A DNA stretch of 32,952 nt from Sphingobacteriales bacterium (GTDB lineage Bacteria; Bacteroidota; Bacteroidia; Sphingobacteriales; Sphingobacteriaceae). The position numbers and the translations under genes are program-made. Where the stretch lies: NCBI GenBank assembly GCA_015654985.1, contig JAATFW010000089.1, forward strand, positions 1-32,952. The letters are read 5' to 3'. How positions within the stretch are numbered: the first letter of the stretch is position 1; each line of letters opens with the position of its first letter. The notes beneath the pieces were generated by a model. That model was not told where the DNA came from. It saw only the letters and a program-made list of their open reading frames with translations, and did not search any database. Below, in pieces: positions 16,404 to 32,952 of the stretch.

Positions 16404-18464
16404 TTATTGTTTCTTATTTTTAAGGTATGTATAAATGTCGTACTGTGCCCTGTATTGCTTTCCGCTTCGTGTTCTTACGTAGCGGTTATTATTAAACTTA
16501 TTGATCTCCCGCGCTTTCGTATTGTCGTTCAACTGAATGGAAATAATATCAGAGATCTCCTGCTTTACATAAGGATCGAGAACAGGGAAACCAACTTCTA
16601 CCCGGCGATCAAGATTACGGGTCAGAAAGTCTGCGGACGAAAGATAAATTTTCTCGTCCCCCCCATTTGTAAAAATCCAGATCCTGGCATGTTCCAGGTA
16701 TTTATCGATAATACTGATCACTTTTATATTTTCACTTAATCCCGGGACTCCGGGAATCAGGCAGCACATGCCTCTGATAATCATCTGGATCTTTACCCCT
16801 GCTGCACCTGCCTCATATATTTTATCGATCATTTCTTCATCAGCGAGGCTGTTCATTTTTAAAATAATCCCCGCGGGTTTACCTGCTGAAGCATTCCGGA
16901 TTTCCCCGTCAATAAGCGCGTAGATCTTCTTTCTTGTTTCAAGCGGAGATACAATGAGATATTTATAGTCGTTATAAAAAACCTTTTTCTCTAATCCCTT
17001 AAACAACTTTTTAAGTTCTTTTGCAATTCCCTGATGGGTGGTAAACAGGCTATGATCGCAATAAAGGTTTGCGGTCTTTTCATTAAAATTGCCAGTGGCC
17101 AGATTGGCATAATACACTGCTTTCCCCTTCTCTATCCGGGTAATTAAACAGATCTTGGAATGTACTTTGTAGTCCAGTAATCCGTAATTAACAAAAACGC
17201 CCTCTTCTTCCAGCCTGTTTGTCCAGTAGATATTATTTTGCTCGTCGAAGCGGGCTTTCAGTTCTATGAGGCAGAAAACTTTTTTCCCGTTCTTTGCGGC
17301 ATTGATCAGTGCATTAATGACCCTCGAATTCTCTGCGAGCCGGTAGAGGGTAATATGGATCTCGGTTACCTTCGGATCGATAGCCGCCTCGCGTAAAAAG
17401 TGAATGATGTAATCAAAAGACTGATACGGCAGATTGATCAGGTAATAGCGTAAAGCAATCTGACCGAAAATGCTTTTACCAAGATCGAGATCAGGAACTT
17501 CCAGGGGCTCCCTTCTTGGATATTCCAGCTCCTTTCTTCCAATATTAGGGAAATTTATAAAGTCCTTGAAATTATGGTACCGGTTGCCCGGTATTAATCC
17601 GTCGGCGGTAAGATCAAGTTTATCTACAAGATATTTAAGCATTTCGGGGGGTATATTGCTATCATATAACAACCTCATAGGCTTCCCCTTTTTACGTTTC
17701 AGAAGGCTTCGGGTCAGTGCGTCTATAAATTTCTCGCTAACAGTTCTGTCGAGCTCGATTTCTGCGTCGCGGGTAAGCTGTACGGAGTATGCTTCTACAT
17801 TCGGGTAATCAAAAATGAAAAAAATATCCTTTAGGCAATACCTTATAATATCATCAAGAAGAATAATAAATTTAAGATCGTTTGTTTCGGGCAGCTCAAT
17901 AAACCGCTCCAGGCTTTCTACGGGTATCTCGATAAGGCTGTATTTGAGTTTTGCCTTTTTATCGTCACGGCTTAACCTCACAAAAAAATAAATAGCACGG
18001 TCTTTCAGTTCAGGAAAAGGCTTACCTTCGTCAAGCATTACAGGTACAAGTGTGGAGAGCAGCTTTTCACGGAAGTATTTCCTCAGAAATTCTCCCCTTT
18101 TAACGTTCAGTTGATGTTCATTTATGATGAAGATCTTTTCCTTTGCAAGCTCCTGAATAATTTCTTTTTCATAGAGATCGTCGAATTTACGTTCCTGCTT
18201 TACAACAATCTCTTTTATTTCCTTAAGGATCTTTTTAGGATTATATCCCAGTTGCTCTTTGGCCCTGGTATTAATATTTGCCAGCCTGCTTAACGTTGGT
18301 ACCCTTACGCGGTAAAATTCGTCAAGATTAGAAGAAAAAATTGCCAGGAAATGGATACGTTCTATCAGTGGAACCGTTTTATCTGCGGCTTCCTGCAATA
18401 CCCGTTCATTGAAATGCAACCAACTGATCTCTCTGTTTGTAAGCAGTATCCTTTGTCTGGACAT
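16404..18464 (-). CDS. ppk1: Polyphosphate kinase 1
   Basis: 686 residues, the normal length. PPK1 makes polyphosphate from ATP at the membrane via a phospho-histidine. The N domain begins LLTNREISWLHFNERVLQEA, typical of the family. The two catalytic histidines fall at H435 (YKVHSKICL) and H592 (LEHARIW), the same numbers as in the E. coli enzyme. An NTP-binding FDEQNNIYW segment precedes the first. It forms a two-gene operon with ppx, so synthesis and breakdown of polyphosphate are co-transcribed with the weaker start on the degrading enzyme. It is divergent from yajQ. Confidence 0.97.
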   Translation of the reverse strand: MSRQRILLTNREISWLHFNERVLQEAADKTVPLIERIHFLAIFSSNLDEFYRVRVPTLSRLANINTRAKEQLGYNPKKILKEIKEIVVKQERKFDDLYEKEIIQELAKEKIFIINEHQLNVKRGEFLRKYFREKLLSTLVPVMLDEGKPFPELKDRAIYFFVRLSRDDKKAKLKYSLIEIPVESLERFIELPETNDLKFIILLDDIIRYCLKDIFFIFDYPNVEAYSVQLTRDAEIELDRTVSEKFIDALTRSLLKRKKGKPMRLLYDSNIPPEMLKYLVDKLDLTADGLIPGNRYHNFKDFINFPNIGRKELEYPRREPLEVPDLDLGKSIFGQIALRYYLINLPYQSFDYIIHFLREAAIDPKVTEIHITLYRLAENSRVINALINAAKNGKKVFCLIELKARFDEQNNIYWTNRLEEEGVFVNYGLLDYKVHSKICLITRIEKGKAVYYANLATGNFNEKTANLYCDHSLFTTHQGIAKELKKLFKGLEKKVFYNDYKYLIVSPLETRKKIYALIDGEIRNASAGKPAGIILKMNSLADEEMIDKIYEAGAAGVKIQMIIRGMCCLIPGVPGLSENIKVISIIDKYLEHARIWIFTNGGDEKIYLSSADFLTRNLDRRVEVGFPVLDPYVKQEISDIISIQLNDNTKAREINKFNNNRYVRTRSGKQYRAQYDIYTYLKNKKQ

Positions 18465-20197: not shown

Positions 20198-21799
20198 TCA
20201 GGCTTCCGCACCGACAGGTTTTCTGTAAGGCTTTAGCAGATATCCTTTAGCTACACCTATAAACACATCAACCTGTTGCTTTTCCCATTCGAAATCTCTG
20301 TTAAGTTCGGCTGCAAGCAAAGCAGCTACTGCAGCAGCCATATCAATAGCAGCCTGGGCATCCAGAAATAAGGCCCTTACCCTTCTTGCCAGTACATCCT
20401 CCACAGTCCTCGCCATTTCATGACGTACAGCCCATATTACTTCTGCTTTCATATAGGGCATATCCGGGTGAAGCCTTTGCTTCCACAGCGGGTTTTCTTT
20501 TATAAGGTCTAAAAGTTCCGCCCGGTCACTTCCATATACGTATAAATGATCGGTAAAATCAATTGTCTTCTTACTGCCATGAATCGGAAGATCTTTAGTC
20601 TTACATGGCCGGGGAGTAAGGTTACACGTTTTTATAGCCCTGTCTATAGTATCTTCTCCCATTCTTCTGAATGTAGTCCATTTACCACCGGTTATCGTGA
20701 TCATACCAGATTGTGATACTATGATCTTATGACTGCGGGAAATTTCTTTGGTCTTTGCCGAATCGCCCTGGGGAGCCGCCAGTGGACGGAGTCCGGCAAA
20801 TACACTAAGAACATCTTTGCGGGCAGGCGCTTTCGCAAGATACCGGGCTGAAGTGCGCAGAATAAACTCAACCTCCTCATCGAGAGCTTTAGGCTCAAGG
20901 CTATGCTCATTTAAAGGAGTATCAGTTGTGCCTACAACCAGCTTATCATGCCATGGCACAGCAAAAAGGACCCGTCCATCGTCAGTCTTTGGGATCATAA
21001 GGGCATCGTTCCCATTCATAAAAGATCTATCGAGAATGAGATGAACTCCCTGGCTCGGCCTTACCAACGGCTTATGTCCCGGCTCGTCCATTTTAAGTAA
21101 ATCGTCTACAAAAACGCCTGTAGCATTTATAACAGACTTGCCTTTAACATTATAAGTTTTGCCACTTTCCATATCCTTTACAACCACCCCGGCTACCTTA
21201 TTCTGATATTTTATCAGACTGGCAACATTAAAGTAATTAAGGGTAATGGCGCCCTTCTCAACGCAGGTCTGAGCGAGATTTACCGCAAGCCTTGAATCAT
21301 CAAATTGACCATCGTGATAAACAACCCCTCCATACAAGCCGCTCTGCCTGATAGTGGGGATCCTTCGGATCACTTCCTTCCTGGAAATATGTTTTGAATG
21401 CCCCAGACTCAGTTTACCCGCAAGTAAATCGTATAATGTTAATCCAATAGTATAAAACGGACCACCCCACCACTCGTAATTCGGAATAATAAAAGACTCG
21501 TTTTTCACCAGGTGAGGTGCGTTCTTAAGCAACAGCCCCCGCTCATAAAGAGCTTCCCTTACGAGGCCTATATCGCCCTGGGCCAGATATCGTACACCGC
21601 CGTGTACCAGCTTCGTGCTGCGGCTGGATGTTCCTTTTGCAAAATCCGCCTGTTCAAATAGTACTGTTTTATATCCTCTGGAAGCTGCATCTAAGGCCGC
21701 TCCTAACCCTGTTGCTCCCCCCCCCACTACTATTACATCCCATACAGTTTCAAGTCCTGAAATTTTTTGGATAAGATCATCCCGTTTAATATTATTCAT
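20198..21799 (-). CDS. glpD: FAD-dependent glycerol-3-phosphate dehydrogenase
   Basis: 533 residues from ATG 21799. GlpD oxidises glycerol-3-phosphate to dihydroxyacetone phosphate at the inner membrane and passes electrons to quinone. The FAD-binding motif VIVVGGGATGLGAALDAASR is at 23-42, followed by GTSSRSTKLVHGGVRYL and later VNATGVFVDDL, VRPSQGVHL, and the C-terminal ITGGKWTTFRRM and VRHEMARTVEDVLARRVR. An ATG 20 codons upstream lies beyond the TACTTTTG promoter and is rejected. It is divergent from a DeoR/GlpR-type regulator and close to the GlpQ-PLD-SusCD-GlpT operon, which would supply its substrate. Confidence 0.96.
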   Translation of the reverse strand: MNNIKRDDLIQKISGLETVWDVIVVGGGATGLGAALDAASRGYKTVLFEQADFAKGTSSRSTKLVHGGVRYLAQGDIGLVREALYERGLLLKNAPHLVKNESFIIPNYEWWGGPFYTIGLTLYDLLAGKLSLGHSKHISRKEVIRRIPTIRQSGLYGGVVYHDGQFDDSRLAVNLAQTCVEKGAITLNYFNVASLIKYQNKVAGVVVKDMESGKTYNVKGKSVINATGVFVDDLLKMDEPGHKPLVRPSQGVHLILDRSFMNGNDALMIPKTDDGRVLFAVPWHDKLVVGTTDTPLNEHSLEPKALDEEVEFILRTSARYLAKAPARKDVLSVFAGLRPLAAPQGDSAKTKEISRSHKIIVSQSGMITITGGKWTTFRRMGEDTIDRAIKTCNLTPRPCKTKDLPIHGSKKTIDFTDHLYVYGSDRAELLDLIKENPLWKQRLHPDMPYMKAEVIWAVRHEMARTVEDVLARRVRALFLDAQAAIDMAAAVAALLAAELNRDFEWEKQQVDVFIGVAKGYLLKPYRKPVGAEA

Positions 21800-21840
21800 G
21801 TTTATGTTCCGGTTTAATATTGTCTGAATATAAATATATT

Positions 21841-21848
21841 CAAAAGTA
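21841..21848 (-). promoter_or_regulatory. -7 element of glpD
   Basis: On the minus strand this is TACTTTTG, an exact match to TAnnTTTG, 41 bases before ATG 21799. It fixes the choice of start for glpD. No clear -33 box. Confidence 0.55.
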
Positions 21849-22134
21849 AAAAATAACAAAACGAAATAAAAGAAAAATTTAAAAATAATATGTCGGAATA
21901 TTTACAGCACTATTTCCGGAACTATTTCTTTTCATGGAGTCACCTGATGCAGGAGCAAGGCATACAAGACTATATAAAAAAGATATAAAGCATTAAGCCA
22001 CCCGGTTTGCCTGAGACATAACATTATAAACTGAAATATGTATGTGTTAAATTTGTGATAGATTTATAACTTTATAGTGAAAATAAAATTCAGATTATAT
22101 TAACATTAAAGCTTACATAATAAGCCAATTAACA

Positions 22135-22142
22135 TACTTTTA
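22135..22142 (+). promoter_or_regulatory. Possible -7 element of the DeoR regulator gene
   Basis: TACTTTTA is one base from TAnnTTTG and lies 20 bases before ATG 22163. Confidence 0.35.
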
Positions 22143-22162
22143 ACCTGGTCAAATTAAATTAA

Positions 22163-22930
22163 ATGATAAGTATAACTGATCGACATCAACTGATATTAAA
22201 AAAGCTAAAGGAAAACGGGCATGTAAATGTACAGGACCTGAGCGCTGAAATGAACGTTTCGGATGTAACAATAAGAAAGGATCTGAAACTTTTGGAAGAT
22301 AAAAATCTTTTATTCAGAACACATGGCGGAGGGTCTGTTAAAAACCCCTATGCCAACGACCGTCCTGTAAACGAGAAAGAACAGATCTTCAGGGAGGAAA
22401 AGCAAAAAATTGCAAGAGAAGCAGCAAAAATGATAGGGAGCCATGATTCTATCATTATTGCATCGGGAACAACAGTGCTTGCGGTGGCAAGATGCATTAA
22501 CCCGGCCACACACCTCACCGTGATCACTTCTGCTCTTAACGTAGCACTCGAACTCTCGCTGAGGCCGAATGTTGAGATCCTGCAATTAGGCGGACAGCTC
22601 CGTCAAAATTCATCCTCTGTTGCAGGCCCATATGCCGAAGAGTTATTAAAAGATGTAACATGCGGGGTTTTATTCCTCGGAGTGGATGGTATTGATCTAG
22701 AATCAGGACTAACAACAACCAGTCTTATGGAAGCCCGTCTAAATCAGAAAATGATGGAAGCGGCACAGGTGACTGTTGTTGTAGCAGACAGTTCCAAATT
22801 TGGAAGACGGGGCTTAGGGAAAATTTGCAGCATTGATAAAATCCAGCATGTCATCACAGATAGCGGGATCTCTGAATCGATGAAACGGGCCCTGGAAGAA
22901 AGCGGCATTAAAGTTACGGTTGCAGAGTAA
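22163..22930 (+). CDS. DeoR/GlpR-family transcriptional regulator
   Basis: 255 residues. The N-terminal winged HTH (residues about 4-58) has the DeoR signature RHQLILKKLKENGHVNVQDL and VSDVTIRKDLKLLE, then the THGG wing. The C-terminal sugar-phosphate sensor (about 75-230) has IASGTTVLAVARC, ITSALNVALEL, LGGQLRQNS and the VDGIDLESGLTTT loop. Members of this family respond to phosphorylated sugars or, for GlpR, glycerol-3-phosphate. Its position, divergent from glpD and convergent with the glycerophosphodiester operon, makes it the likely repressor of glycerol-3-phosphate metabolism. It is the only regulator encoded next to that SusCD operon within this window. Confidence 0.9.
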   Translation: MISITDRHQLILKKLKENGHVNVQDLSAEMNVSDVTIRKDLKLLEDKNLLFRTHGGGSVKNPYANDRPVNEKEQIFREEKQKIAREAAKMIGSHDSIIIASGTTVLAVARCINPATHLTVITSALNVALELSLRPNVEILQLGGQLRQNSSSVAGPYAEELLKDVTCGVLFLGVDGIDLESGLTTTSLMEARLNQKMMEAAQVTVVVADSSKFGRRGLGKICSIDKIQHVITDSGISESMKRALEESGIKVTVAE

Positions 22931-22935
22931 GAGGA

Positions 22936-22971
22936 TCAGCAGTTAAATATCAGGGAATACTTAACTGCTGA
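22936..22971. terminator. Stem-loop after deoR, between convergent genes
   Basis: TCAGCAGTTAA (22936-22946) and TTAACTGCTGA (22961-22971) form a perfect 11-bp stem with a 14-base loop, 6 bases after the deoR stop. A run of six T follows only 30 bases later (23001-23006), so it is not a textbook terminator, but it is the only strong hairpin between deoR and the end of the glpQ operon and may terminate both. Confidence 0.5.
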
Positions 22972-23029
22972 CGAAGGCGGGTTGAGATTTCCTGCTTCCC
23001 TTTTTTAATCAACGTAGTGTACTTTTTCA

Positions 23030-23947
23030 TTATTTACCATTTATCTTATTAAATAAATCAGGGTAGTCGGAAATAATCCCGTCAACTCCCATCTTCATTA
23101 ACGAGCGGATTGCATCTTCTTCGTTCACCGTCCATGGAATTACTTTAATATTACGCTGATGGCAGGCGTCAACCATCTCTTTAGTTACAATTGAAGACTC
23201 CGGGCTATAGACAGCGGGATTAAAACCAAGAGATTTTAAGTTCTGCGCAAGTTCTCCGGTTTTTTTGTCGACCAGATAAGAAAGCCTTACCCGGGGATAA
23301 AGGCGATGTATAATTTGCAATGGTCTTATGTCAAATGACTGAATGATGGTGCGGTCAATGAGATTTTTTTGCTTGAGTACTCCTATAACGAGGTCAACAA
23401 ATTCCTGTGGTTCGGGATGATACACGTTATCATTTGCCTTATTTGATTTGATCTCCATATTGTATTGCATCTTCCTTCCTTTTGAAGCAGCATAAGCCCC
23501 GGCAGAATCAATAAGCGCTGTTAACAGCGGTTTTACCGCAGCTACCTTTTTCTGACGGGGAAAATCAGGGTGCGGTTTTAATCCTACATCATATTTTCTG
23601 ATACTATCATAGGTCATAGAATAAAGAAGAGTTTTTCTGGCCTGCTGGGGGGTAAGATACCCGCCGGAGGGAGTGGTAGAAAATAAGTTATGAAAATAAG
23701 AGTCGTGAGAGACCACTACCTTCTTATCCTTCGATATCTGAAGATCCAGCTCGAGAGTTGTTGCATTGAGGTCTATTGCATTTTTCATGGCTGCTATTGT
23801 ATTTTCAGGCATTAATCCCCTTCCACCCCGGTGCGCTTCAAAATCAAAAACGGAAGGTTTAGTGCCTGAAGAGGCCGGTTTGCGCGAAGAGCAGCTCATC
23901 AAAATACTTCCGACTGCAAGGAAGATGTAAATACTTGTGTTCTTCAT
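23030..23947 (-). CDS. glpQ: Glycerophosphodiester phosphodiesterase lipoprotein
   Basis: 305 residues. It hydrolyses glycerophosphodiesters (for example glycerophosphocholine or -ethanolamine) to glycerol-3-phosphate and an alcohol, in the envelope. The lipobox is SILMSC with Cys19. The GDPD signature is complete: H39-R40-GGRGLM-P47-E48-N49-T, E66-L-D68 for the metal and H81 as second catalytic histidine; MEIKSN and the IISDYP end motif follow. The residues after the lipid cysteine are SSRKPASS, without the acidic patch that promotes surface export in Bacteroidota, so it may face the periplasm. It is the last gene of the glpT-susCD operon, 15 bases after the phosphoesterase gene. Confidence 0.92.
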   Translation of the reverse strand: MKNTSIYIFLAVGSILMSCSSRKPASSGTKPSVFDFEAHRGGRGLMPENTIAAMKNAIDLNATTLELDLQISKDKKVVVSHDSYFHNLFSTTPSGGYLTPQQARKTLLYSMTYDSIRKYDVGLKPHPDFPRQKKVAAVKPLLTALIDSAGAYAASKGRKMQYNMEIKSNKANDNVYHPEPQEFVDLVIGVLKQKNLIDRTIIQSFDIRPLQIIHRLYPRVRLSYLVDKKTGELAQNLKSLGFNPAVYSPESSIVTKEMVDACHQRNIKVIPWTVNEEDAIRSLMKMGVDGIISDYPDLFNKINGK

Positions 23948-23962
23948 AATATATTTAGCTAT

Positions 23963-25381
23963 TTAGCGGGTAACTTCAGATTCGTATTTTTTACCAAAGC
24001 GATCGGTAGCCACAACCTTAATTGTTTTTACTTCCGTCGATGCATGTACAAGAAAGAGGTGATTTGTTTTATGCGGTTCTATCCACGCACGTCTGTCGGC
24101 AGGTAGTTTATCACCTTTATATAGTATCAATGAAAGCGGATCAAATCCCTTAACCTGTTCCGGAGCTCCCATGTATTTATCGTCGGCCCACCACTCCACT
24201 TTCCATTCAGGATCCCAGTTCCAGACATTAGCTATTACGCGTGTCTGGCCATTCAGATCTTCAATATTAACGCTTAACTGATAATCCCGGTCATGGCCGG
24301 TTGATTTGTAATGCCATTTAAGATCATTGCCGTCAACTTCATAAACGCCGTAACCACGGGGTGTGCCATCGCCACATACCGGTCCTGTCCACCAGGCTCC
24401 GCAAACGGTTCCGTGATTATGCTCAAAAATCTCGTTCTTAATAGTATTGATATTATAATGAGTATGTCCGGACATAATATGAACATTTTTGAACGAAGCC
24501 AGCAAAGCATAGAGATCTTCGTTGTTTTTGACGGCATTATGTACGGGAATATGAAGGCAGATAATAATCAGAGAATCTTTTCCGACATGTTCAAGATCAA
24601 GCTTTAACCAGTCCAGTTGCTGCTGTGTAATATAGCCATCATAGTTTCTTTCCGTTCCCAGATACCTTACGTCATCCAGAACTATATAATGCGCCCTGCC
24701 CCTGTTAAACGAATAGTAAGTTGGCCCATACAGACTTTGAAATGTATCATCCGAGCTTTCATCACCCCCTTTATTATAATCCATGTCGTGGTTGCCAAGA
24801 GCCTGAAAAAATGGGATATTCATTTTTTCTACCGCCTCGTTATACTGTCTAAATAAAGAATGGTTATCCCAGACCAGGTCTCCGACACTTATGCCGTGTA
24901 TTAAAGCTCCCGCTCCAAGCGACTGAACAAACTGCTGTACATCGGGAACTGAAGTACTCAGCATCTGGCCGACATCGTTGTTGTCTTTAACCTGGGGATC
25001 TGCCCATATGATAAATTGATGACGGGTATCGTCTTTCTTAAGAGGAACGAGATGAAAATCGTAAGGCTTTTTATTATCAGTGATCGTGTGATAAAACCTT
25101 GCTATACTTTTCTCCCGGGGAAATTCATATCCCGGCGGAACTGATACAAATACAAATTGTGCCTCCTTGTTATAAGGGAGTTCATAACGGCCGTCAGAAT
25201 TAGTAAAAGCCACACTAAACCCATCGGAGACTGTTACTCTTTTCAGCTTTTTATTGCCAGCCGTTACAGTCCCACTGATCTTCTGTACGGAGGCAGCAGC
25301 AAATAAGTTGCCGGGTTTAGAGGAAAATACAAGTCCTCCTGAAATCAGTGAAACTGTCTTAATGAAAAATCTTCTGTTCAT
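23963..25381 (-). CDS. Calcineurin-like metallophosphoesterase with N- and C-terminal extra domains
   Basis: 472 residues. The start MNRRFFIK followed by a hydrophobic stretch and LFAAAS resembles a twin-arginine (Tat) signal. Residues about 35-112 form a beta-rich domain (ISGTVTAG...NSDGRYELPY), as in MetallophosN. The catalytic core has D128-P-Q130, G167-D168, G196-N-H-D199, H277 and G305-H-T-H308; a glutamine takes the place of the usual histidine in the first motif. Residues about 330-472 match the MetallophosC-type domain. The family cleaves phosphomonoesters or phosphodiesters. It lies between PLD-like and GlpQ genes, 31 and 15 bases away, and probably removes or opens a phosphate group of the same substrate. 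Exact reaction unknown. Confidence 0.88.
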   Translation of the reverse strand: MNRRFFIKTVSLISGGLVFSSKPGNLFAAASVQKISGTVTAGNKKLKRVTVSDGFSVAFTNSDGRYELPYNKEAQFVFVSVPPGYEFPREKSIARFYHTITDNKKPYDFHLVPLKKDDTRHQFIIWADPQVKDNNDVGQMLSTSVPDVQQFVQSLGAGALIHGISVGDLVWDNHSLFRQYNEAVEKMNIPFFQALGNHDMDYNKGGDESSDDTFQSLYGPTYYSFNRGRAHYIVLDDVRYLGTERNYDGYITQQQLDWLKLDLEHVGKDSLIIICLHIPVHNAVKNNEDLYALLASFKNVHIMSGHTHYNINTIKNEIFEHNHGTVCGAWWTGPVCGDGTPRGYGVYEVDGNDLKWHYKSTGHDRDYQLSVNIEDLNGQTRVIANVWNWDPEWKVEWWADDKYMGAPEQVKGFDPLSLILYKGDKLPADRRAWIEPHKTNHLFLVHASTEVKTIKVVATDRFGKKYESEVTR

Positions 25382-25412
25382 TTTTATTTAATCTGAAAAA
25401 TCATGAAAGGGG

Positions 25413-26576
25413 TTAATTTATGCCAGGTAACTTCTTCATTTCATTGTAATAACTTATATAAGAATTATATAAACTACTATAGTTTTTAAGCATTAAAAGG
25501 GTTTCATTATTATTACGCAACGCATTGGTGGTATAGTTATGGCTTCCGGTGGCAATAATTGTACACTGTTCTCCTTTATACTTCCCCTCAATGAGCAAAA
25601 ACTTAGAGTGGATATTGGTTTTTGAGATGTTATATATCTTTATAAACGCTCCTCTCGTTTGCATATTTTTAAGCACTGTTTGCACTTCATCGTCTATTTT
25701 GTCTTTTACCACCACCTCAACTTTTGCACCGGAGGATAATAAATCGCTTAATTTATTTGCTACATTAATTCGTGATACCACCCAATCAGACATACCAACA
25801 CGAATGGTTGCTGTAGCGGGATCTGTAATATTATTAAGAATTTCAATAATCGTGTCGTCTCCATATGAAGCGCCATTCCTTCTCTTAGGGAAGAAGAAGG
25901 CAGTTATTCCATCAGTAGTGCCGTTGTATTCCCGGTAATAAAAATCTTCCATGTCGCCGGAAGCCTTAGCTCTCACATCATTCCAATAAGTGAGGTATGC
26001 ATTATAGAGTCCCTCATTACTCAGGGTTACGGCATCCTGTATTTTTTTGGAATCATCAACTGTGAAATTATGCGACGTCTGAAATATAACATTTGCAGCT
26101 TTGCCCTGATCCGTATTAAGTTCGGAGAACAGGACGAATTTATTATGGCTGATAGAAGACGTATTCACATCATTGGTAACTACAACTACTTCGGAACCGG
26201 CCTTAATAGAACTTTTCAACGACGTTATAGCTGATGAATTTTGTAAAATAGTCTCATCTACACTCATGTCAATCAGAATATGAAGTGCAACACCGCGCCC
26301 GGCAGCTCCTTTCAGAGCCCCGATTACCCCACTATGGTCAAAGCCATATACCGATAAGTAAATGCTGGCGTTGTCGGGAGTGGCTTCAATCATACCAATT
26401 AGCTTATCCATAATTATCGGCGATGCCTGTGCATTAGAGACTTTTGCTAACTCAGTAAAATAAACGCCAGGGAGATTTACATTGACAGAAGTATCAGCAG
26501 GCTGTTTATTAGTATTTTTCTTACAGGAGACAAAGACTAAAAGTACTATAAAAAGATTATAAACAATTTTTTTCAT
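25413..26576 (-). CDS. PLD-like phosphodiesterase lipoprotein
   Basis: 387 residues from ATG 26576. The N-terminus is a lipoprotein signal with Cys18 (VLLVFVSCKK). Two phospholipase-D-like halves follow. The first has H144-N-K146 with a serine where the motif aspartate is expected (151), then T-S-H-N at 167-170. The second has H323-S-K325 with glutamate at 330, then G-S-H-N at 344-347. PLD enzymes cleave phosphodiester bonds through the two histidines; both are kept, so activity is plausible. An ATG 37 codons earlier overlaps the preceding gene and lacks a signal peptide, so it was rejected. It sits in the glpT-susCD-glpQ operon, 28 bases after the DUF5689 gene. Candidate substrates are phospholipids, glycerophosphodiesters or teichoic-acid-like polymers; a nuclease role cannot be excluded. 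Confidence 0.8.
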   Translation of the reverse strand: MKKIVYNLFIVLLVFVSCKKNTNKQPADTSVNVNLPGVYFTELAKVSNAQASPIIMDKLIGMIEATPDNASIYLSVYGFDHSGVIGALKGAAGRGVALHILIDMSVDETILQNSSAITSLKSSIKAGSEVVVVTNDVNTSSISHNKFVLFSELNTDQGKAANVIFQTSHNFTVDDSKKIQDAVTLSNEGLYNAYLTYWNDVRAKASGDMEDFYYREYNGTTDGITAFFFPKRRNGASYGDDTIIEILNNITDPATATIRVGMSDWVVSRINVANKLSDLLSSGAKVEVVVKDKIDDEVQTVLKNMQTRGAFIKIYNISKTNIHSKFLLIEGKYKGEQCTIIATGSHNYTTNALRNNNETLLMLKNYSSLYNSYISYYNEMKKLPGIN

Positions 26577-26604
26577 ATTAAAATCTCTATCAAAGTATTT
26601 AACC

Positions 26605-27870
26605 TCAATATCCCTGATAAATGGCAAAGTCATCAATACCCAAACGTCCGTTATATATTGTTGGAATACTGGTTGGACCGAGCCCAAGTTTAAAAATCCG
26701 GAACCTCACAGGCCCTTTAATATCCATTAGAAAAGTAGCCTGCTTAGGCGCAGTACTTGTACTGGTTGGCAAAGGATCTGATATAATATCCCCCGTTTGG
26801 TGCCATGTTACTCCCTGATCTGTTGAATATTCTAAAATGAATGATGATGATGCATCAGTATAATAACACCCATACCAGAAGGTTACTTTTGTCGCTCCAT
26901 TTGTTAGATCATAATTCATTTGGAGATAACAGGGAGTCGCATCTGTCAGGCCTTGCTGGAAACGTATTGACTGGGTCCCTGAAACAATCCTGTCGCGGCC
27001 TGCTGTATTACCTAATAAACACTGCTCCAGCCGCCAGCTCCCGGTTTTAAGATCAATACTTTTCCCTGCGTAGGTGCCTTTAAGGGAGAAGTCAGGCGAT
27101 TCAAAATCCTCGGGATATCCGGGATAAATAGGGCCGCTGGGATTCAGCATATCACCAATCGTACGTAACCGCAACTGCTGGGTTTCACTATTGGCCATAT
27201 AAGGAATACCTATAAAAGTCGCACTGGGAGCTATGTTCAGATCTGCAAAAGCTGAATTAGATTCGGTATACAGATTATAAGATGAATTAGCCCCATCACT
27301 TATAGTTTTATTACCCGAAAAAGTCTCATTAACAGGAAATGGCGTTACATCTGCAGTAATACTTATCAAAGTATTTTCGTAATTATAAAAGTTCTTAGTC
27401 AGTTCCGAAATGGAGACCGGCCGGGTGATTACAGTTTGGTTACTTGATATTTTGTTTACATTAGAACCATTCAACCCGGTAACAATCAAAGGCCCGGCAG
27501 ATCTGGAAAGAGTTGTACCATTAAGTTCAACTACAACAGAATCGCCCACCACCAGACTAGAAGCAGTAGTCTGATCTAATGCAAGTACAAGACCACGAAC
27601 AAGACCACGCCACCTGTTCTGTATTACCACATAACCGTCAGGAAGATTATGGGAGGAAGCATCCGAAACGACAATTCCAGCAGTCAGATGGGCTCCTGCC
27701 AGCGTTTGAGGCCCGAGCTTAACATCAGCATCTTTATAAGCAGCCCGGACAACATATACAGATGCCATCGGATTCAGTACCCCTTCGGCCGCATTAAAAT
27801 TCTCTTTAAGACATGACGATAAGCTAAAAACACTTATCAATATAGTCAAAAAATAAAATACCTTTTTCAT
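26605..27870 (-). CDS. DUF5689-type surface lipoprotein
   Basis: 421 residues with lipobox SLSSC (Cys20), followed by L-K-E, an acidic-containing tail like those of surface-exposed Bacteroidota lipoproteins. Residues about 35-240 have the beta-rich OB-like pattern of DUF5689 (AGIVVSDASSHNLPDGYVVIQ, VGDSVVVELNG, LRTIGDM). Residues about 255-421 look like a jelly-roll or MAM-like carbohydrate/ligand-binding domain (EDFESPDFSLKGTYAGKS, TKVTFWYGCYY, GIDDFAIYQGY). No catalytic motif is visible. Genes of this type usually follow susCD and are thought to be accessory substrate-binding proteins (SusE/F-like role). It starts 22 bases after susD. Confidence 0.78.
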   Translation of the reverse strand: MKKVFYFLTILISVFSLSSCLKENFNAAEGVLNPMASVYVVRAAYKDADVKLGPQTLAGAHLTAGIVVSDASSHNLPDGYVVIQNRWRGLVRGLVLALDQTTASSLVVGDSVVVELNGTTLSRSAGPLIVTGLNGSNVNKISSNQTVITRPVSISELTKNFYNYENTLISITADVTPFPVNETFSGNKTISDGANSSYNLYTESNSAFADLNIAPSATFIGIPYMANSETQQLRLRTIGDMLNPSGPIYPGYPEDFESPDFSLKGTYAGKSIDLKTGSWRLEQCLLGNTAGRDRIVSGTQSIRFQQGLTDATPCYLQMNYDLTNGATKVTFWYGCYYTDASSSFILEYSTDQGVTWHQTGDIISDPLPTSTSTAPKQATFLMDIKGPVRFRIFKLGLGPTSIPTIYNGRLGIDDFAIYQGY

Positions 27871-27892
27871 CTTACATTAAGTTACTAATGAA

Positions 27893-29356
27893 TTAATCGG
27901 GTGTATTCCACCATACCTTTATATTGATATCATCACCGCCTATGGCGTTAACAGCCTCCTGATAATTAACGGGATTTGTAGCCTGGGTATTAATAGGATA
28001 CCTGAACCTGGAAGGCATTTGCCCGTTATTTTGCACACCGGGACCTATTGGAAGCACGGGATGTCTGGTCCGTCTGAATTCAGACCAGGACTGAAAATCG
28101 GTAAAGAACAGGGTATAGTATTTCTGAAGCAGAATCTGATCCATTTTCTCATCAAATGATCCTGCATCATTCCATTTAACATCCTCTTTATCCAGATGCC
28201 CGGTTGGCATTGCTACATCCCACATTGTAATTGCGCTCTCCACACCTTTATCATAAAAGGATTTGGGAGAACCACTGATGTATTCTTTTAAGGCCGCCTC
28301 CGCAAGGATAAACTGCAGTTCAGCATAATTCAGAATATTGCCTAAGCGACGTTCTGATTTCAGAGCACTTAATAATGTCGACATAATTTCAGGCACTTGC
28401 CCTGTAGCATATCCACTGGACATCCCTATGTATCCTCCACCAACTGTCGTCGCCCATTTGGTCAGACGGGGATCCTGCCAGGCATTCAGGTTATTAATAA
28501 AAAACTCCGTATAACCTTTTCCTCCGCTAAAATCAAGATCACGATAATTCGCAAACTCAGAGATAAGCGGAGTAGTACCACCTATGGGAAGAATAGCAGA
28601 TTCAGCATTACTCGTAAATACAGGATATTTTGCGCTGTTGGTATTTATAATCTCGTTAATTTTGGCTATGGCACCTGATTCAGCTTTTCCGGAGACACGC
28701 AGCAGCAAACGCAAATAAAGCGAATTCCCAAATTTTCTCCAATTTACCGCGAGACCACCATATAAAGGATCAAGAGATTTTTGGTCTTCCGGAAAGTCTG
28801 TATTTTCAGTTAACAATGTATTGGCCTCTTCCAGCTTCCTGAAAAGATCCTGATAAATATCTTTCTGTTTGTCAAACCTAGGCTGCACGAGCGCTTCTTT
28901 TCCCATATTCGATTGAAAATAAGGCACATCGCCATACATGTCTGTTATCATCGAACTTACCCATGTATCCAGGATGAGACCTATAGCCATAAAAGTTTTA
29001 TATGCTGGCTGTTTGGTAATATTTGCGCTGGTATACATATCCCTGAAGTTCGTCAGTTGCAGATACCAGTTTCTCCACATGTAGTCAGATTCACTGGGTT
29101 TAATTTCATATCGATGAAAATCTCTTGATTCTGAAGTTGTTACATGAACCTGCATCAATTCATTACTTATTCGCAATGCGCGGGTGAGATCGCTGTTGAC
29201 AACTGCAAGTAAGGCCGGGGCTAAAAGAGCCTCAGGTGTAGCTGCTGCAGTACCATTAGGATTTTTGTTAATTTCTGCAAAATCCTTAGTACAAGATGGG
29301 CTGAATATGGTTATTGCCAATGTAACAATCCATATAAAGTTCCTTATATTTTTCAT
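27893..29356 (-). CDS. susD: SusD/RagB-family outer-membrane lipoprotein
   Basis: 487 residues. The signal ends SPSC followed by T-K-D-F, matching a surface-export tail. Residues 30-60 have the NKNPNGTAAATPEALLAPAL opening of the SusD-like type 2 group; TPR-like helices include YKTFMAIGLILDTWVSSMITDMYGDVPYFQ and LNYAELQFILAEAALKEY; the C-terminal LFFTDFQSWSEFRRTRHPVL motif is typical. SusD proteins form the lid over SusC and bind the substrate. It begins 11 bases after susC. The ligand here is not a known glycan; the operon points to a glycerophosphate compound. Confidence 0.92.
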   Translation of the reverse strand: MKNIRNFIWIVTLAITIFSPSCTKDFAEINKNPNGTAAATPEALLAPALLAVVNSDLTRALRISNELMQVHVTTSESRDFHRYEIKPSESDYMWRNWYLQLTNFRDMYTSANITKQPAYKTFMAIGLILDTWVSSMITDMYGDVPYFQSNMGKEALVQPRFDKQKDIYQDLFRKLEEANTLLTENTDFPEDQKSLDPLYGGLAVNWRKFGNSLYLRLLLRVSGKAESGAIAKINEIINTNSAKYPVFTSNAESAILPIGGTTPLISEFANYRDLDFSGGKGYTEFFINNLNAWQDPRLTKWATTVGGGYIGMSSGYATGQVPEIMSTLLSALKSERRLGNILNYAELQFILAEAALKEYISGSPKSFYDKGVESAITMWDVAMPTGHLDKEDVKWNDAGSFDEKMDQILLQKYYTLFFTDFQSWSEFRRTRHPVLPIGPGVQNNGQMPSRFRYPINTQATNPVNYQEAVNAIGGDDINIKVWWNTPD

Positions 29357-29367
29357 AATTCTATTCT

Positions 29368-32300
29368 TTATAAACTTAAGTTCAAGTTAATCCCAACAGT
29401 TCGGGTAGAAGGAAACTGCGCTATTTCTGAACCCTGGGTAATTTCTCCGTCTGCAAGCGTTCCAAATTCGGGGTCAAACGCCGGCCACTTAGAGAAAACC
29501 AGCAAATCCCTTCCATATATACCAATTGTTGCTTTTTGGATTTTTAATCTGCGAACTAATTTTGGAGGCAACGTATAATCAAACCGGGCCTCCCTCAATT
29601 TAATATAATCGGTCCTGAACATATTAGCCTCCAGGTTATCTCTTTGAAAATGAGCAAAATAGTAATCTCCAATATTTGTTGCCACTACATCATTTTTGCG
29701 GTATGTGCCGTCATCATTCTTAATCACACCATTGCCAATAATTCCATTATACCTTCCGGGAATTGTTTCTTTCAGTTTCCCCTCTTCAGCCAAAACAGCA
29801 TGGGTAAGAGAATAGGCCCATCCGCCAATCTGCCCGTCAAAAAGGAAACTAAACCCGAACTGTTTATAATTAAACTGATTTCCTAATCCAAACTTCCATT
29901 TTGGCACGTAATTTCCCAAATAAAGCAGGGAATCGCCTAATAAAGGATAACCGTTTTCATAAACTATCTGGCCATCAGGAGAACGAACATACCCAAGTCC
30001 GTACATATCCCCCAGGCTTCCTCCCGTACGAGCTTCGACAGACCCGCGGCTTCCAAAAACGGTAGTCAGCACTTTCTGATCACCAGGAATGCTGATAACT
30101 TTATTGCGGTTTGACGAAAAATTCCCGTATGTTTTCCAATTTAATCCATTTTTCGATTTAAGGGGCGTCCCGTTTATCTGAACTTCCAGACCCTTGTTCT
30201 GAATATTTCCTGCATTCACTACCATTAAAGCATAACCGCTTGACAGATCAACGGGACCTTGCACGATCTGATCGAAAGTATTATTCTTATAAACTGAAAG
30301 ATCTAATCCTATCCTGCTTTTAAATAAACGAACATCGGCTCCAAGCTCAAGACTCCTGGTTCTCAAAGGTTTCAGATCTTCATTAGGGATAACTGTGGGA
30401 TTGGATAAACCTCCGGGAAAATAAACATCAGAATTATAAGTATAAGACGTTAAGTAGGGGGTTGCTGATCCGCTTCCAACTTCCGCCCATGAAGCCCGAA
30501 GCTTGGCAAAAGAAATCGCTTCAGGTAAAGTAAAAGCATCCGACAGAACGGCACTAAGATTAACTGACGGATAAAAGAAAGGTTTCGCACCGGTTGCTAT
30601 ATTCGGGTTAACCAGAGTACTGGTCCAGTCTATACGAGAAGTTATATCAAGATACAGATAGTTTTTATAACTTATAGAGCCAAGTCCGTACAAACCATTC
30701 ACTGAGTACCGCGAACGATAAGGTCTCGATTCTATATTGAGCTTACTGTTCGACAGATTGAATATGCCTGGAAATAAAAGCTTCTCTGCCCGGTATTCAT
30801 CTCTCCGGTACCGGTTATTCATTAAACTCCCACCTACAGAAACATTGTAATTAAACAGGGAATTCTTTTTTTCGCCATTATATCTTAGTAAAAAATCACT
30901 GTTAATTTCCTGAGTAATAATATCCTGTTCGCGATACATTCCATCAGCGTATTTTTGAGTATTCTTGGGACGCTGCTGAGATCTCTCCTCTGCCATAAAG
31001 TCTACGGCGGTCCTTAACATGAGGCTTAATTTCTCGTTAAAATTATAAGTGGCAGATACATTTCCTACTACTCCATTACGCTTGGATTTGTTCAGCATTT
31101 CATATGCCTGCAAAAAAGGATTATCCAGCTGTAATGAAAATGGCCTGCGCTGTGTAACGCCTTCCTCTCCCGGAATCCAATAATCCTTAAACCAGTTTAT
31201 ATCCATATTAGGAGTAATACCTCTTATGAAATACATAATTGTTTGGTTATTATATCCGGTTGAAGGTAAATTATCGCTCCACCGGTTGTTATAGCTTATT
31301 TTACTGGATATAGATAAATTATCGCTTACTTTATGGTTAAGTTGTAATGCCACTGTATTTCGGTTATAGCCGGTATTTGGCACAATCCAGCTATTAACCA
31401 TATTGGTGTATGACAACCGCGCTGAAGTCTTTTCTGTACCCCCTGAAACAGTTAAACTATTGGTATATGTCTTTGCTATTTCAAAAAAATCTTTCCTGTT
31501 GTCAGGATATGCAACCCAGGGAGTTTTTACAGCCGTACCCGAAGGTATAGCAGTAAGCCGGTACCGGGCGGGATCGTATTGATAATAAAGCTGTCCTTCA
31601 AACTTCGGCCCCCAGGCAGAACTGGAGCTATATGTTCTTGCTCCGTCCTCACTGTCTCCGTACGAATAATATAAATCGCCATTAGCTGCCCGGTCTCCCT
31701 GACCATATTCATACTGGTAATCCGGCCAGCGGTTAATGGCAGCAAATGCAGTATTGGAATTGAAGGAAATTCCGAGGCCTTTCTGCTGGCGGGCCCCCTG
31801 CTTTGTGGTGATTATAACAGCTCCGTTAGCACCGCGGGATCCATATAATGCTGCTGCACCCGGCCCTTTTAATACAGAAACACTTTCAATATCGTCTGGA
31901 TTAATATCCGCGAGGCTCGATCCAAAGTCAACCGGAGAATCAGCGTCAAGATAATTACCATTACCTTTACCCTGTCCTGTCAATTTGCCGCTGCTGCCAC
32001 TTATAACCACTCCGTCTACTACAATCAGGGCTTCACTACTGCCAAGCAACGAATTTTCACCACGAAGTATTATTTTATCGGAGCCAACCGGGCCAGAGCC
32101 CGATTTAATAATATTCAATCCGGCTACCTTTCCGGTCAATGCATCGGTCCAGTTGTTTGACATAGCCTCAGTAAGGTCTCCTCCTTTTACTGTGGTAACA
32201 GAATATCCCAATGATTTTTCTTCACGCTGGATACCAAGTGCCGTCACTACAGCTTCCTGTAACTGGACCGCATCTTCCGTTAACCGAACATTCATTACAG

Positions 32301-32598
32301 TCTGGGTTTTAACTGGCACTTCCGTCGTTTTAAATCCGATAGCTGAAATAACCAACGTTTCATTACCGGCAACAGAAATTGTAAACTGTCCGCTTACATT
32401 GGTCGAGGTTCCTCTCGTTGTTCCCTTTACTCTTACTGAGGCCCCGATAACCGGTAACCCATCAGCCGTACTTTTAACAGTGCCACTGATACGTCGTTGC
32501 TGGCCAAAGCTTACCGAAGCTAAGGCAACAAACAGGAGAAATAGTACCAGTTTCAAGCCGATACCTCTCCCTCGTGAGGAGTGTAGATTTATACGCAT
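29368..32598 (-). CDS. susC: SusC/RagA TonB-linked outer-membrane transporter
   Basis: 1076 residues. After a signal peptide ending SFGQ (residue about 33) comes a carboxypeptidase-regulatory-like domain (RISGTVKSTADGLPVIGASV, about 36-105), then the plug with KSLGYSVTTVKGGDL, KIILRGENSLLG, ALIVVDGVVISG and the family hallmark GPGAAALYGSRGANGAVIIT (about 246-265), then a 22-strand-type beta barrel to the C-terminal aromatic end. SusC imports bulky substrates through the outer membrane using TonB energy. It follows glpT by 24 bases and precedes susD by 11, so all three are in one transcript. The length is usual for the family. Confidence 0.95.
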   Translation of the reverse strand: MRINLHSSRGRGIGLKLVLFLLFVALASVSFGQQRRISGTVKSTADGLPVIGASVRVKGTTRGTSTNVSGQFTISVAGNETLVISAIGFKTTEVPVKTQTVMNVRLTEDAVQLQEAVVTALGIQREEKSLGYSVTTVKGGDLTEAMSNNWTDALTGKVAGLNIIKSGSGPVGSDKIILRGENSLLGSSEALIVVDGVVISGSSGKLTGQGKGNGNYLDADSPVDFGSSLADINPDDIESVSVLKGPGAAALYGSRGANGAVIITTKQGARQQKGLGISFNSNTAFAAINRWPDYQYEYGQGDRAANGDLYYSYGDSEDGARTYSSSSAWGPKFEGQLYYQYDPARYRLTAIPSGTAVKTPWVAYPDNRKDFFEIAKTYTNSLTVSGGTEKTSARLSYTNMVNSWIVPNTGYNRNTVALQLNHKVSDNLSISSKISYNNRWSDNLPSTGYNNQTIMYFIRGITPNMDINWFKDYWIPGEEGVTQRRPFSLQLDNPFLQAYEMLNKSKRNGVVGNVSATYNFNEKLSLMLRTAVDFMAEERSQQRPKNTQKYADGMYREQDIITQEINSDFLLRYNGEKKNSLFNYNVSVGGSLMNNRYRRDEYRAEKLLFPGIFNLSNSKLNIESRPYRSRYSVNGLYGLGSISYKNYLYLDITSRIDWTSTLVNPNIATGAKPFFYPSVNLSAVLSDAFTLPEAISFAKLRASWAEVGSGSATPYLTSYTYNSDVYFPGGLSNPTVIPNEDLKPLRTRSLELGADVRLFKSRIGLDLSVYKNNTFDQIVQGPVDLSSGYALMVVNAGNIQNKGLEVQINGTPLKSKNGLNWKTYGNFSSNRNKVISIPGDQKVLTTVFGSRGSVEARTGGSLGDMYGLGYVRSPDGQIVYENGYPLLGDSLLYLGNYVPKWKFGLGNQFNYKQFGFSFLFDGQIGGWAYSLTHAVLAEEGKLKETIPGRYNGIIGNGVIKNDDGTYRKNDVVATNIGDYYFAHFQRDNLEANMFRTDYIKLREARFDYTLPPKLVRRLKIQKATIGIYGRDLLVFSKWPAFDPEFGTLADGEITQGSEIAQFPSTRTVGINLNLSL

Positions 32599-32622
32599 AT
32601 TTTATCAGTTTGGTTAATTTAT

Positions 32623-32952
32623 TTATATTGATATTTTGTTCAACTCTCTTTTCCATGTAAAGGCAGTAAATACAATTGCCAGAAGGCATGATGAACTCAG
32701 CACAATAAAACCGCCGTCCCAACCCCACCTGTCAACTACATACCCTATAGCGATGTTGGCAAAAACAGCCCCGCCCAGATAGCCGAACAAGCCGGTAAAA
32801 CCAGCGGCTGTTCCGGCTGCATTTTTAGGTACCAGATCAAGTGCCTGTACACCGATAAGCATTACCGGGCCATAGATCAGGAATCCGATAGTAACCAGGG
32901 CAATATTGTCGACCGCAGGATGTCCGGGAGGGTTTTTCCAGTAAACAATCAC
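32623..32952 (-). CDS. glpT: Glycerol-3-phosphate transporter, C-terminal part
   Basis: The last 109 residues of an MFS protein; the start lies beyond the window edge. [20 protein letters not shown], then [19 protein letters not shown] and [12 protein letters not shown] match the C-terminal part of GlpT (and its organophosphate:phosphate antiporter relatives) closely, as I recall the E. coli sequence. It would exchange periplasmic glycerol-3-phosphate for cytoplasmic phosphate. It ends 24 bases before susC, so it is upstream in the same operon. UhpT-type hexose phosphate transporters are related but diverge in this segment, and the glpQ and glpD neighbours support glycerol-3-phosphate. Confidence 0.85.

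What the first reader, a model, noticed from the sequence alone, without database searches (positions are those of the whole stretch)
20198..32952. A SusCD operon dedicated to a glycerophosphate substrate
Seen: seven consecutive minus-strand genes with gaps of 11-31 bases encode GlpT, SusC, SusD, a DUF5689 lipoprotein, a PLD-like lipoprotein, a metallophosphoesterase and GlpQ, with glpD and a DeoR/GlpR regulator next door. Known: SusCD loci mostly handle glycans, while GlpQ-GlpT-GlpD is the route for glycerophosphodiesters. Inference: this is a non-glycan utilisation locus that captures a glycerophosphate compound (phospholipid head group, glycerophosphodiester or poly-glycerophosphate), cleaves it to glycerol-3-phosphate and oxidises it. 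No glycoside hydrolase is present, which fits.
Basis: partly seen in the sequence, partly recalled or inferred. Interest (0 to 1): 0.78.

Follow-up and report, generated by a model that had tools for sequence, protein, structure and literature searches.

The report
Glycerophosphate-capture SusCD operon
This is a conserved set of genes with which many Bacteroidota probably take in phosphate-linked glycerol compounds, such as the head groups of dead cells' membrane lipids, through an outer-membrane gate family best known for importing sugars.

Summary
The gene run is real: (GlpT fragment)-SusC-SusD-DUF5689-PLD-like-metallophosphoesterase-GDPD on the minus strand, gaps of 11-31 bases, beside GlpD and a DeoR-family regulator. 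The window is a whole contig and cuts GlpT. In 79 named loci of this SusD clade, DUF5689 occurs in 78, the metallophosphoesterase in 55, GDPD in 36 and a glp gene in 27; in 20 control loci around more distant SusD relatives, each occurs in 0. A putative operator core (AAACGAAA) precedes glpD in 22 of 26 regions and some free-standing susC genes. Catalytic residues of the hydrolases are conserved. Best reading: a SusCD system that imports glycerophosphodiesters, hydrolyses them in the periplasm to glycerol-3-phosphate and oxidises that with GlpD. It works like the Flavobacterium PUS phosphate systems but has another SusD subfamily and a glp/DeoR setting. The exact substrate is not shown; glycosylated polyglycerophosphate (teichoic acid) remains open.

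The parts
32623..32952 (-). GlpT, glycerol-3-phosphate transporter, C-terminal 109 codons only (cut by the contig end)
   Evidence: TIGR00712 153 bits over positions 337-438; 88.9% identical to a full-length GlpT in L029 that is over the TIGR00712 cut-off
29368..32598 (-). SusC-like TonB-dependent outer-membrane transporter
   Evidence: TIGR04056 581 bits, PF13715, PF07715
27893..29356 (-). SusD-like surface lipoprotein (SusD-like_2 type)
   Evidence: PF12771 334 bits; profile matches 26 distinct solved sequences, mostly SusD-like
26605..27870 (-). DUF5689 lipoprotein, probable surface substrate-binding accessory
   Evidence: PF18942; in 78 of 79 clade loci, 0 of 20 controls; model pLDDT 90.7, jelly-roll/CBM/reelin/MAM-like matches
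25413..26576 (-). PLD-superfamily lipoprotein with two HxK motifs
   Evidence: PF13091 two stretches; H145xK147 and H324xK326 invariant in 7 of 7 sequences; start at 26576
23963..25381 (-). Calcineurin-like metallophosphoesterase, Tat-like N terminus, Rv0805/GpdQ-like fold
   Evidence: PF16371/PF16370; metal-ligand residues and R3, R4, F6 invariant in 30 of 30; Foldseek best hits Rv0805, then GpdQ at rank 6
23030..23947 (-). GDPD lipoprotein, glycerophosphodiester phosphodiesterase
   Evidence: PF03009 134 bits; closest solved relative 3ch0, E 1.4e-80; H39, R40, E66, D68, H81, K167 invariant in 20 of 20
22163..22930 (+). DeoR-family regulator
   Evidence: PF08220 and PF00455; closest NCBIfam model AgaR, below cut-off
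21859..21866 (.). Putative operator core AAACGAAA, 60 bases before the likely glpD ATG
   Evidence: exact motif upstream of glpD in 22 of 26 regions vs 13 of 378 control intergenic regions
20198..21799 (-). GlpD, FAD-dependent glycerol-3-phosphate dehydrogenase (likely ATG at 21799)
   Evidence: PF01266 and PF16901; start

Best explanation
A glycerophosphodiester utilisation locus. Shown from sequence: SusC/SusD with a third surface-type lipoprotein (DUF5689) are co-encoded with three predicted phosphodiester/phosphate hydrolases and GlpT, and in many genera are linked with glpD, glpK, glpF and a DeoR-type regulator. Inferred mechanism: SusD and DUF5689 bind a glycerophosphate compound at the cell surface (glycerophosphocholine, -ethanolamine, -glycerol, -inositol, or lysophospholipid/oligo-glycerophosphate). 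SusC imports it whole, driven by TonB. In the periplasm GDPD, the GpdQ-like metallophosphoesterase and, where present, the PLD-like protein and a GDSL esterase release glycerol-3-phosphate (or glycerol) and the head-group alcohol. GlpT brings glycerol-3-phosphate into the cytoplasm (GlpF/GlpK handle glycerol) and GlpD oxidises it to dihydroxyacetone phosphate. The DeoR-family protein, acting at AAACGAAA-type sites before glpD and free-standing susC genes, would induce the set when the phosphorylated intermediate appears, so it serves mainly carbon, with phosphate as a by-product.
For: Identical seven-gene order in a same-genus genome; 79 named clade loci vs 20 control loci: DUF5689 78 vs 0, metallophosphoesterase 55 vs 0, GDPD 36 vs 0, any GlpD/K/F/T 27 vs 0, DeoR 25 vs 0. 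Selecting by glpT instead of SusD: 47 of 201 order genomes have glpT; of the 47 stretches, 40 hold SusD, 37 the metallophosphoesterase, 47 GDPD, 29 a GDSL gene (some genomes occur in both sets). In 27 of 79 loci a glp gene stands in the same-strand run as SusCD. On the SusD tree the glp label needs at least 14 changes (losses and cut contigs included). Conserved active-site residues: GDPD 20 of 20, metallophosphoesterase 30 of 30, PLD 7 of 7. Metallophosphoesterase fold nearest Rv0805 and near the glycerophosphodiesterase GpdQ. Motif: 22 of 26 glpD upstream regions vs 13 of 378 (L031 and L086 are the same locus, so 21 of 25 without the duplicate). Free-standing susC genes: 4 of 5, plus L187 and L034.
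Against: No expression, binding or growth data. SusD specificity cannot be read from sequence. 37 of 79 clade loci have ECF/FecR genes and only 3 of those also have a glp gene; 18 of 79 have neither. Five of 47 glpT stretches carry glpD-glpK-glpF-GDPD-glpT without SusD (one of them, L203, has a SusC-type gene), and L188/L189 lack SusCD within the fetched stretch. 154 of 201 order genomes had no glpT match at E 1e-100. Some relatives carry GH36, GH89, GH95 or other glycosidases. The exact motif is absent upstream of glpT in G002, upstream of susC in L232, L238 and L243 and L203 and L218, and it also occurs elsewhere (3 times in the 33-kb window, 4 times in 20 kb of L147). The window operon's own promoter lies off the contig. 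The PLD resembles nucleases NucT and Nuc, weakly.
Confidence: 0.72

Rival explanations
1. The substrate is a glycosylated polyglycerophosphate (lipoteichoic or glycerol-type wall teichoic acid) or a related phosphoglycan: SusCD takes in oligomers, a GDSL esterase removes acyl or D-alanyl groups, alpha-glycosidases trim sugars where present, and GDPD/PLD/metallophosphoesterase break the glycerophosphate chain.
For: Some relatives add GH36 alpha-galactosidase (L029, L047, L117), GH89 alpha-N-acetylglucosaminidase (L027, L029, L036) or phosphodiester glycosidases of the NAGPA family (6 of 114 scanned operon proteins). DUF5689 has CBM-like matches. A SusCD suits an oligomer.
Against: Glycosidases are sporadic and of various families (also GH95, GH35, GH43, alpha-L-fucosidase). 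The window operon has none. A literature search with SusC, teichoic acid and related terms listed no paper on such a locus by title.
Confidence: 0.15
2. A phosphate-scavenging (PUS-type) system for mixed organophosphates, controlled by phosphate starvation, with glycerophosphate only one of several substrates. This overlaps with the main reading in mechanism; the odds are not exclusive.
For: Flavobacterium PusCD complexes sit with phosphodiesterases and are induced by phosphate depletion (PMC8115612; passages and sections 16 and 19 read). PUSI has an ECF sigma factor, as do 36 of 79 clade loci here. Clade members also carry EEP and PF04185 phosphoesterases.
Against: PusD1 and PusD2 are PF07980/PF14322 proteins, not PF12771 as here; the other PusD forms were not compared. 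The glp-linked loci use a DeoR-type regulator and include glpD/glpK/glpF, which point to carbon use.
Confidence: 0.2
3. A nucleic-acid scavenging locus: DUF5689 and PLD act on DNA or nucleotides.
For: PLD's only solved relatives by sequence are the nucleases NucT and Nuc. A different DUF5689 protein is listed among those essential for natural transformation in Riemerella anatipestifer (PMC8459023, passages). Some relatives carry EEP-family proteins.
Against: GDPD, GlpT, GlpD, GlpK and GlpF have no known role in nucleic-acid use (recalled), and PLD clusters in only 8 of the 92 stretches compared.
Confidence: 0.04

Closest known systems
PUS / PusCD phosphate utilisation systems of Flavobacterium johnsoniae (Lidbury et al. 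2020, PMC8115612)
   Same: A SusC/SusD pair co-encoded with predicted periplasmic phosphodiesterases; outer-membrane binding and transport followed by periplasmic degradation was proposed there.
   Different: PusD1 and PusD2 belong to PF07980/PF14322, this SusD to PF12771. GlpT, glpQ and glycerol do not occur in that main text, although it mentions unnamed inner-membrane organophosphate transporters. Here the nearby regulator is DeoR-type and glp genes are linked. Phosphate response untested here.
Polysaccharide utilisation loci (SusCD PULs)
   Same: SusC-SusD-third surface lipoprotein-hydrolases-inner-membrane transporter layout.
   Different: The window operon has phosphoesterases instead of CAZymes.
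Escherichia coli glp regulon (glpTQ, glpD, glpFK, glpR; recalled)
   Same: GDPD to GlpT to GlpD logic with a DeoR-family regulator.
   Different: Adds a TonB-type outer-membrane capture system, a surface DUF5689 protein, a GpdQ-like metallophosphoesterase and a PLD-like protein.
GpdQ of Enterobacter aerogenes and Rv0805 (class III phosphodiesterases; class name recalled)
   Same: Among the best Foldseek matches of the metallophosphoesterase model; metal-ligand residues conserved.
   Different: About 17% identity, TM-score by query length only 0.38-0.39 because of extra N- and C-terminal domains; Tat-like start; activity untested.

Membership tests
SusCD outer-membrane uptake system | SusC/RagA TonB-dependent transporter | tested here: met
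   TIGR04056 581 bits vs cut-off 368
SusCD outer-membrane uptake system | Adjacent SusD family lipoprotein | tested here: met
   PF12771 334 bits, 11 bases from SusC
Glycan PUL | Co-encoded carbohydrate-active enzymes | tested here: not met
   none among the window operon's proteins; sporadic in relatives
PUS / PusCD | SusCD next to phosphomono- or phosphodiesterases | tested here: met
   GDPD, metallophosphoesterase, PLD; GDPD or metallophosphoesterase in 62 of 79 clade loci
PUS / PusCD | Induction by phosphate depletion | not testable with these tools
   needs expression data
PUS / PusCD | Same SusD subfamily as PusD1/PusD2 (PF07980, PF14322) | tested here: not met
   window SusD matches PF12771 and PF12741 only; PusD domains from PMC8115612 Table 1. 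The other four PusD forms not compared
GDPD glycerophosphodiester phosphodiesterase | GDPD domain with catalytic residues | tested here: met
   PF03009 over cut-off; residues invariant in 20 of 20; role of each residue recalled
GlpT glycerol-3-phosphate transporter | GlpT equivalog score | tested here: inconclusive
   fragment scores 153 bits; 88.9% identical relative scores 730 vs cut-off 632.55 for TIGR00712, but 738.5 vs 748 for PRK11273
GlpR (DeoR family) | Equivalog-level match to a GlpR model | tested here: not met
   131 bits vs 331 for PRK10906; only the DeoR family is supported
Class III phosphodiesterase (GpdQ/Rv0805) | Fold and metal-ligand residues | tested here: met
   (role of residues recalled); glycerophosphodiesterase activity not testable here
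PLD superfamily | Two HxK motifs | tested here: met
   invariant in 7 of 7; phospholipase versus nuclease not resolved

The most novel reading that the evidence does not exclude
A teichoic-acid (glycosylated polyglycerophosphate) utilisation locus: Bacteroidota would take up oligomers of Gram-positive lipo- or wall teichoic acid with SusCD, strip acyl and sugar substituents, and burn the glycerophosphate backbone as carbon and phosphate source.
Probability: 0.14. Interest if true: 0.82.

Novelty: new variant of a known kind. Interest (0 to 1): 0.58.

Why it matters
SusCD systems are mostly annotated as glycan importers. A widespread SusD clade whose partners are mainly phosphoesterases and, in a third of loci, the glp pathway gives a concrete, testable example of a dedicated organophosphate/carbon importer in Bacteroidota. 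It offers a substrate hypothesis for DUF5689 and for the PF16370/PF16371 metallophosphoesterases, and a route for recycling membrane-lipid head groups or teichoic acids from dead cells.

Tried and rejected
Chance arrangement: rejected by the conserved order in relatives and by the control loci. Plain glycan PUL: not supported by the census of operon partners. Membership in PUSI/PUSII: SusD subfamily differs. A sequence search of solved structures with the metallophosphoesterase alone found nothing; the profile gave weak matches to purple acid phosphatases and Rv0805 and the model matched Rv0805 and GpdQ. The DUF5689 fold search gave only general jelly-roll relatives, TM-score by query length at most 0.30 among the 50 rows shown. 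Extending AAACGAAA to a longer consensus or a fixed repeat spacing failed. Two tickets were polled before they were ready.

Limits. The profiles were built from clade loci, so distant members of the same families in control loci may be missed. Loci are related, so Fisher values are not independent. L115 was dropped because no SusD ORF was called (80 to 79). Several loci lie on short contigs with cut neighbourhoods (L059, L062, L079, L080, L092). The motif was found on the same 56 regions on which 22 of 26 was counted, against mononucleotide shuffles; the stretches were fetched afterwards. The grouping '6 of 9 free-standing susC genes' was made after seeing the data; with L203 and L218 (negative, class unsure) it is 6 of 11. 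In one search, 4 of 6 further susC genes with a gap of at least 240 bases in loci with glp or DeoR genes have the motif, but those four are close relatives (Sphingobacterium) without glp genes in reach; other clade loci 0 of 9, controls 1 of 22. The lipobox rule is home-made.
Full report
What is there. The minus strand of 23030-32952 holds, in transcription order, the last 109 codons of GlpT, then SusC, SusD, a DUF5689 lipoprotein, a PLD-superfamily lipoprotein, a calcineurin-like metallophosphoesterase (MPE below) and a GDPD lipoprotein; GlpD (-) and a DeoR-family regulator (+) follow. Gaps are 24, 11, 22, 28, 31 and 15 bases once the PLD start is set at 26576. The window is the whole contig C5 of its assembly, so the head of the operon and its promoter are missing. 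The window's genome shares its genus with G004, whose contig C117 has the same length (292,961 bases) as a Pararcticibacter amylolyticus contig; that species is in Sphingobacteriaceae, Sphingobacteriales. This placement is inference from contig length.

Conservation. In the same-genus genome G002 the order GlpT-SusC-SusD-DUF5689-PLD-MPE-GDPD is identical, followed by a GDSL esterase, a GH89 protein and a DeoR gene. A profile of ten SusD proteins brought 80 named loci, the best of 569 relatives found, from Pontibacter, Rufibacter, Belliella, Hymenobacter, Sediminibacterium, Pedobacter, Mucilaginibacter, Sphingobacterium, Chitinophaga, Dysgonomonas, Alistipes and others. Same-strand runs such as GlpD-GlpK-GlpF-GlpT-SusC-SusD-DUF5689-x-PLD-MPE-GDPD-GDSL (L049) or GlpD-GlpT-SusC-SusD-DUF5689-MPE-GDPD-GDSL-GlpK-GlpF (L054) occur; 27 of 79 loci have a glp gene in the run. 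Counted with profiles built from these loci, 79 loci (L115 dropped, no SusD ORF) against 20 control loci (more distant SusD relatives in the relatives' genomes at E about 1e-52 to 1e-35, taken in rank order, two fragment rows skipped) give: DUF5689 78 vs 0, MPE 55 vs 0, GDPD 36 vs 0, DeoR 25 vs 0, GlpD 23 vs 0, GlpK 19 vs 0, GlpF 18 vs 0, GlpT 18 vs 0, any glp gene 27 vs 0; SusC 78 vs 20; FecR 37 vs 3; ECF 36 vs 3; GDSL 13 vs 1; PLD 6 vs 0. GDPD or MPE is present in 62 of 79.

Selection from the other side. A search for the TIGR00712 GlpT family at E 1e-100 in 201 genomes of the order found 47 with a match. All 47 surroundings (19 kb, one 12.5 kb) were typed: GDPD in 47, SusD in 40, SusC and SusD in 38, DUF5689 in 37, MPE in 37, GDSL in 29, PLD in 4. 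Of the seven without SusD, five carry glpD-glpK-glpF with GDPD and GlpT (L201, L203, L205, L206, L209; L203 has a SusC-type gene). The other two are L188 and L189; in G023 (L188) a SusCD-MPE operon lies just beyond the fetched stretch on the far side of glpD (L035). So in this order, where glpT is present, it most often stands in a SusCD operon.

Two regulatory forms. Of 27 loci with a glp gene 21 carry a DeoR gene within reach; 37 of 79 carry an ECF/FecR set instead, only 3 of them together with a glp gene; 18 have neither. On a quick tree of 86 SusD proteins the glp label needs at least 14 changes and the ECF label at least 16; labels are by same-strand run, those of the window and four G loci set by hand. 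The association was therefore made or broken repeatedly, though cut contigs add some changes. The window SusD groups with Rufibacter (65% identity) and Belliella (set of three, support 95) rather than with its own genus, which suggests exchange between lineages.

Putative operator. AAACGAAA (either strand) is the most enriched 8-mer in 56 glp-locus upstream regions: in 23, with 1.1 expected from base shuffles. It lies upstream of glpD in 22 of 26 regions (21 of 25 without the duplicate L031/L086), in 1 of 21 internal regions upstream of SusC/GlpT/GlpK, in 0 of 9 upstream of DeoR genes that stand apart from GlpD, and in 13 of 378 control intergenic regions. Of nine usable SusC genes in the glpT loci two have it, L180 and L187. 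Twenty further stretches fetched later show it upstream of SusC in 4 of 5 loci classed 'other' (no glp gene before SusC), in 3 of 14 where a glp or DeoR gene precedes SusC, and in the one ECF locus. Pooling free-standing susC genes after seeing the data, 6 of 9 carry it (L034, L187, L228, L230, L231, L241; not L232, L238, L243), or 6 of 11 with L203 and L218. In the window's genome it lies 60 bases before the likely glpD ATG and 268 bases before the start of the GlpK match on contig C129. It was not found before glpT in G002, and single sites turn up elsewhere. That the DeoR protein binds it is inference.

The enzymes. GDPD: nearest solved relative 3ch0 (E 1.4e-80); H39, R40, E66, D68, H81 and K167 invariant in 20 of 20. 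MPE: D128xQ130, D168, N197-H198, H277 and H306-T-H308 invariant, as are R3, R4 and F6 of a Tat-like start, in 30 of 30; model of mean pLDDT 85.3; Foldseek matches Rv0805 (E 2.4e-10) and GpdQ (E 2.7e-8), TM-score by query length 0.38-0.39. PLD: two HxK motifs invariant in 7 of 7; weak sequence similarity to NucT and Nuc, so phospholipase or nuclease is open. DUF5689: model pLDDT 90.7 whose matches are jelly-roll domains (reelin, CBM22, CBM61, MAM, gingipain adhesin); a surface-binding role is inferred.

Location. Behind a detectable lipobox, SusD and DUF5689 carry acidic residues at +2 to +8 in 62 of 64 and 58 of 59 cases, whereas GDPD has at least one in 7 of 16 and never two. Acidic tails resemble published Bacteroidota surface-export signals (recalled), so SusD and DUF5689 probably face outward and GDPD inward. 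The rule is my own and found no lipobox in 15 of 79 SusD, 24 of 83 DUF5689 and 17 of 33 GDPD proteins; it also missed the window's SusD. PLD is unclear: 4 of 4 with a lipobox in other loci are acidic, the window copy is not. Uptake of the intact compound with periplasmic hydrolysis follows, as inference.

Results against the reading. Many clade members have ECF/FecR control and no glp genes. Of 135 unlabelled operon proteins, 114 of 150-999 residues were scanned. Among the 25 families listed of 113, the enzyme families with most members are PF04185 phosphoesterases (6), NAGPA phosphodiester glycosidases (6), GFO/IDH oxidoreductases (5) and EEP (4); beta-propeller families have up to 7; GH95, GH35, GH43 and alpha-L-fucosidase have 2 each. 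GH36 occurs with L029, L047 and L117, GH89 with L027, L029 and L036, GH27 in L028 and a 33%-identical relative in L125. These sugar-cleaving partners keep glycosylated polyglycerophosphate possible.

Literature. Lidbury et al. 2020 (PMC8115612; sections 16 and 19 and passages read) describe phosphate-induced PusCD complexes beside phosphodiesterases in Flavobacterium, some with inner-membrane organophosphate transporters. The main text does not contain GlpT, glpQ, UgpQ, glycerol or teichoic as word starts; its figures and supplements were not seen, so a GlpT there cannot be excluded. Searches for PusCD/SusCD with phosphate, SusD with glycerophosphodiester, DUF5689, SusC with teichoic acid, SusC with GDPD and GlpT, SusCD with phospholipid terms, Sphingobacteriales terms and Flavobacterium phosphodiesterase terms showed no other title or abstract opening on a glp-SusCD locus. 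Several of those lists were cut at 20 (20 of 1,994), and only open-licence papers are held. A metasecretome on wheat straw lists Sphingobacterium glycerophosphodiester phosphodiesterases (PMC4666044, passages).

Verdict. It is a new variant of a known kind (SusCD uptake loci; PUS-like in function), widespread and testable, with the exact substrate open.

Noticed in passing
15501-18464: A Ppx/GppA-like gene and a polyphosphate-kinase-like gene lie adjacent on the minus strand about 2 kb from glpD; not part of the operon (names from reading the translations, not from a family search).
   Followed up: no
27893-29356: The SusD is closer to Rufibacter (65%) than to the best copies of its own genus (50-52%), while the GlpT fragment is 88.9% identical to a same-genus copy: a mosaic operon or fast-evolving surface proteins.
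   Followed up: partly
L027 10238-20000 and L028 1-5199 (contig C271 of the window's genome): A second SusCD-DUF5689 locus in the same genome with two EEP-family proteins, GH89, GDSL, GH27 and a GDPD gene; none of the window's glp proteins matched there.
   Followed up: partly
L030 5056-8570 and L085 (same locus): SusC is split into two reading frames; described only.
   Followed up: no
L201, L203, L205, L206, L209: glp operons with glpD-glpK-glpF, GDPD and GlpT but no SusD, as if the SusCD cassette had been lost or never gained.
   Followed up: no
32952 (contig end): The N-terminal three quarters of glpT were not found elsewhere in the 88%-complete assembly.
   Followed up: partly
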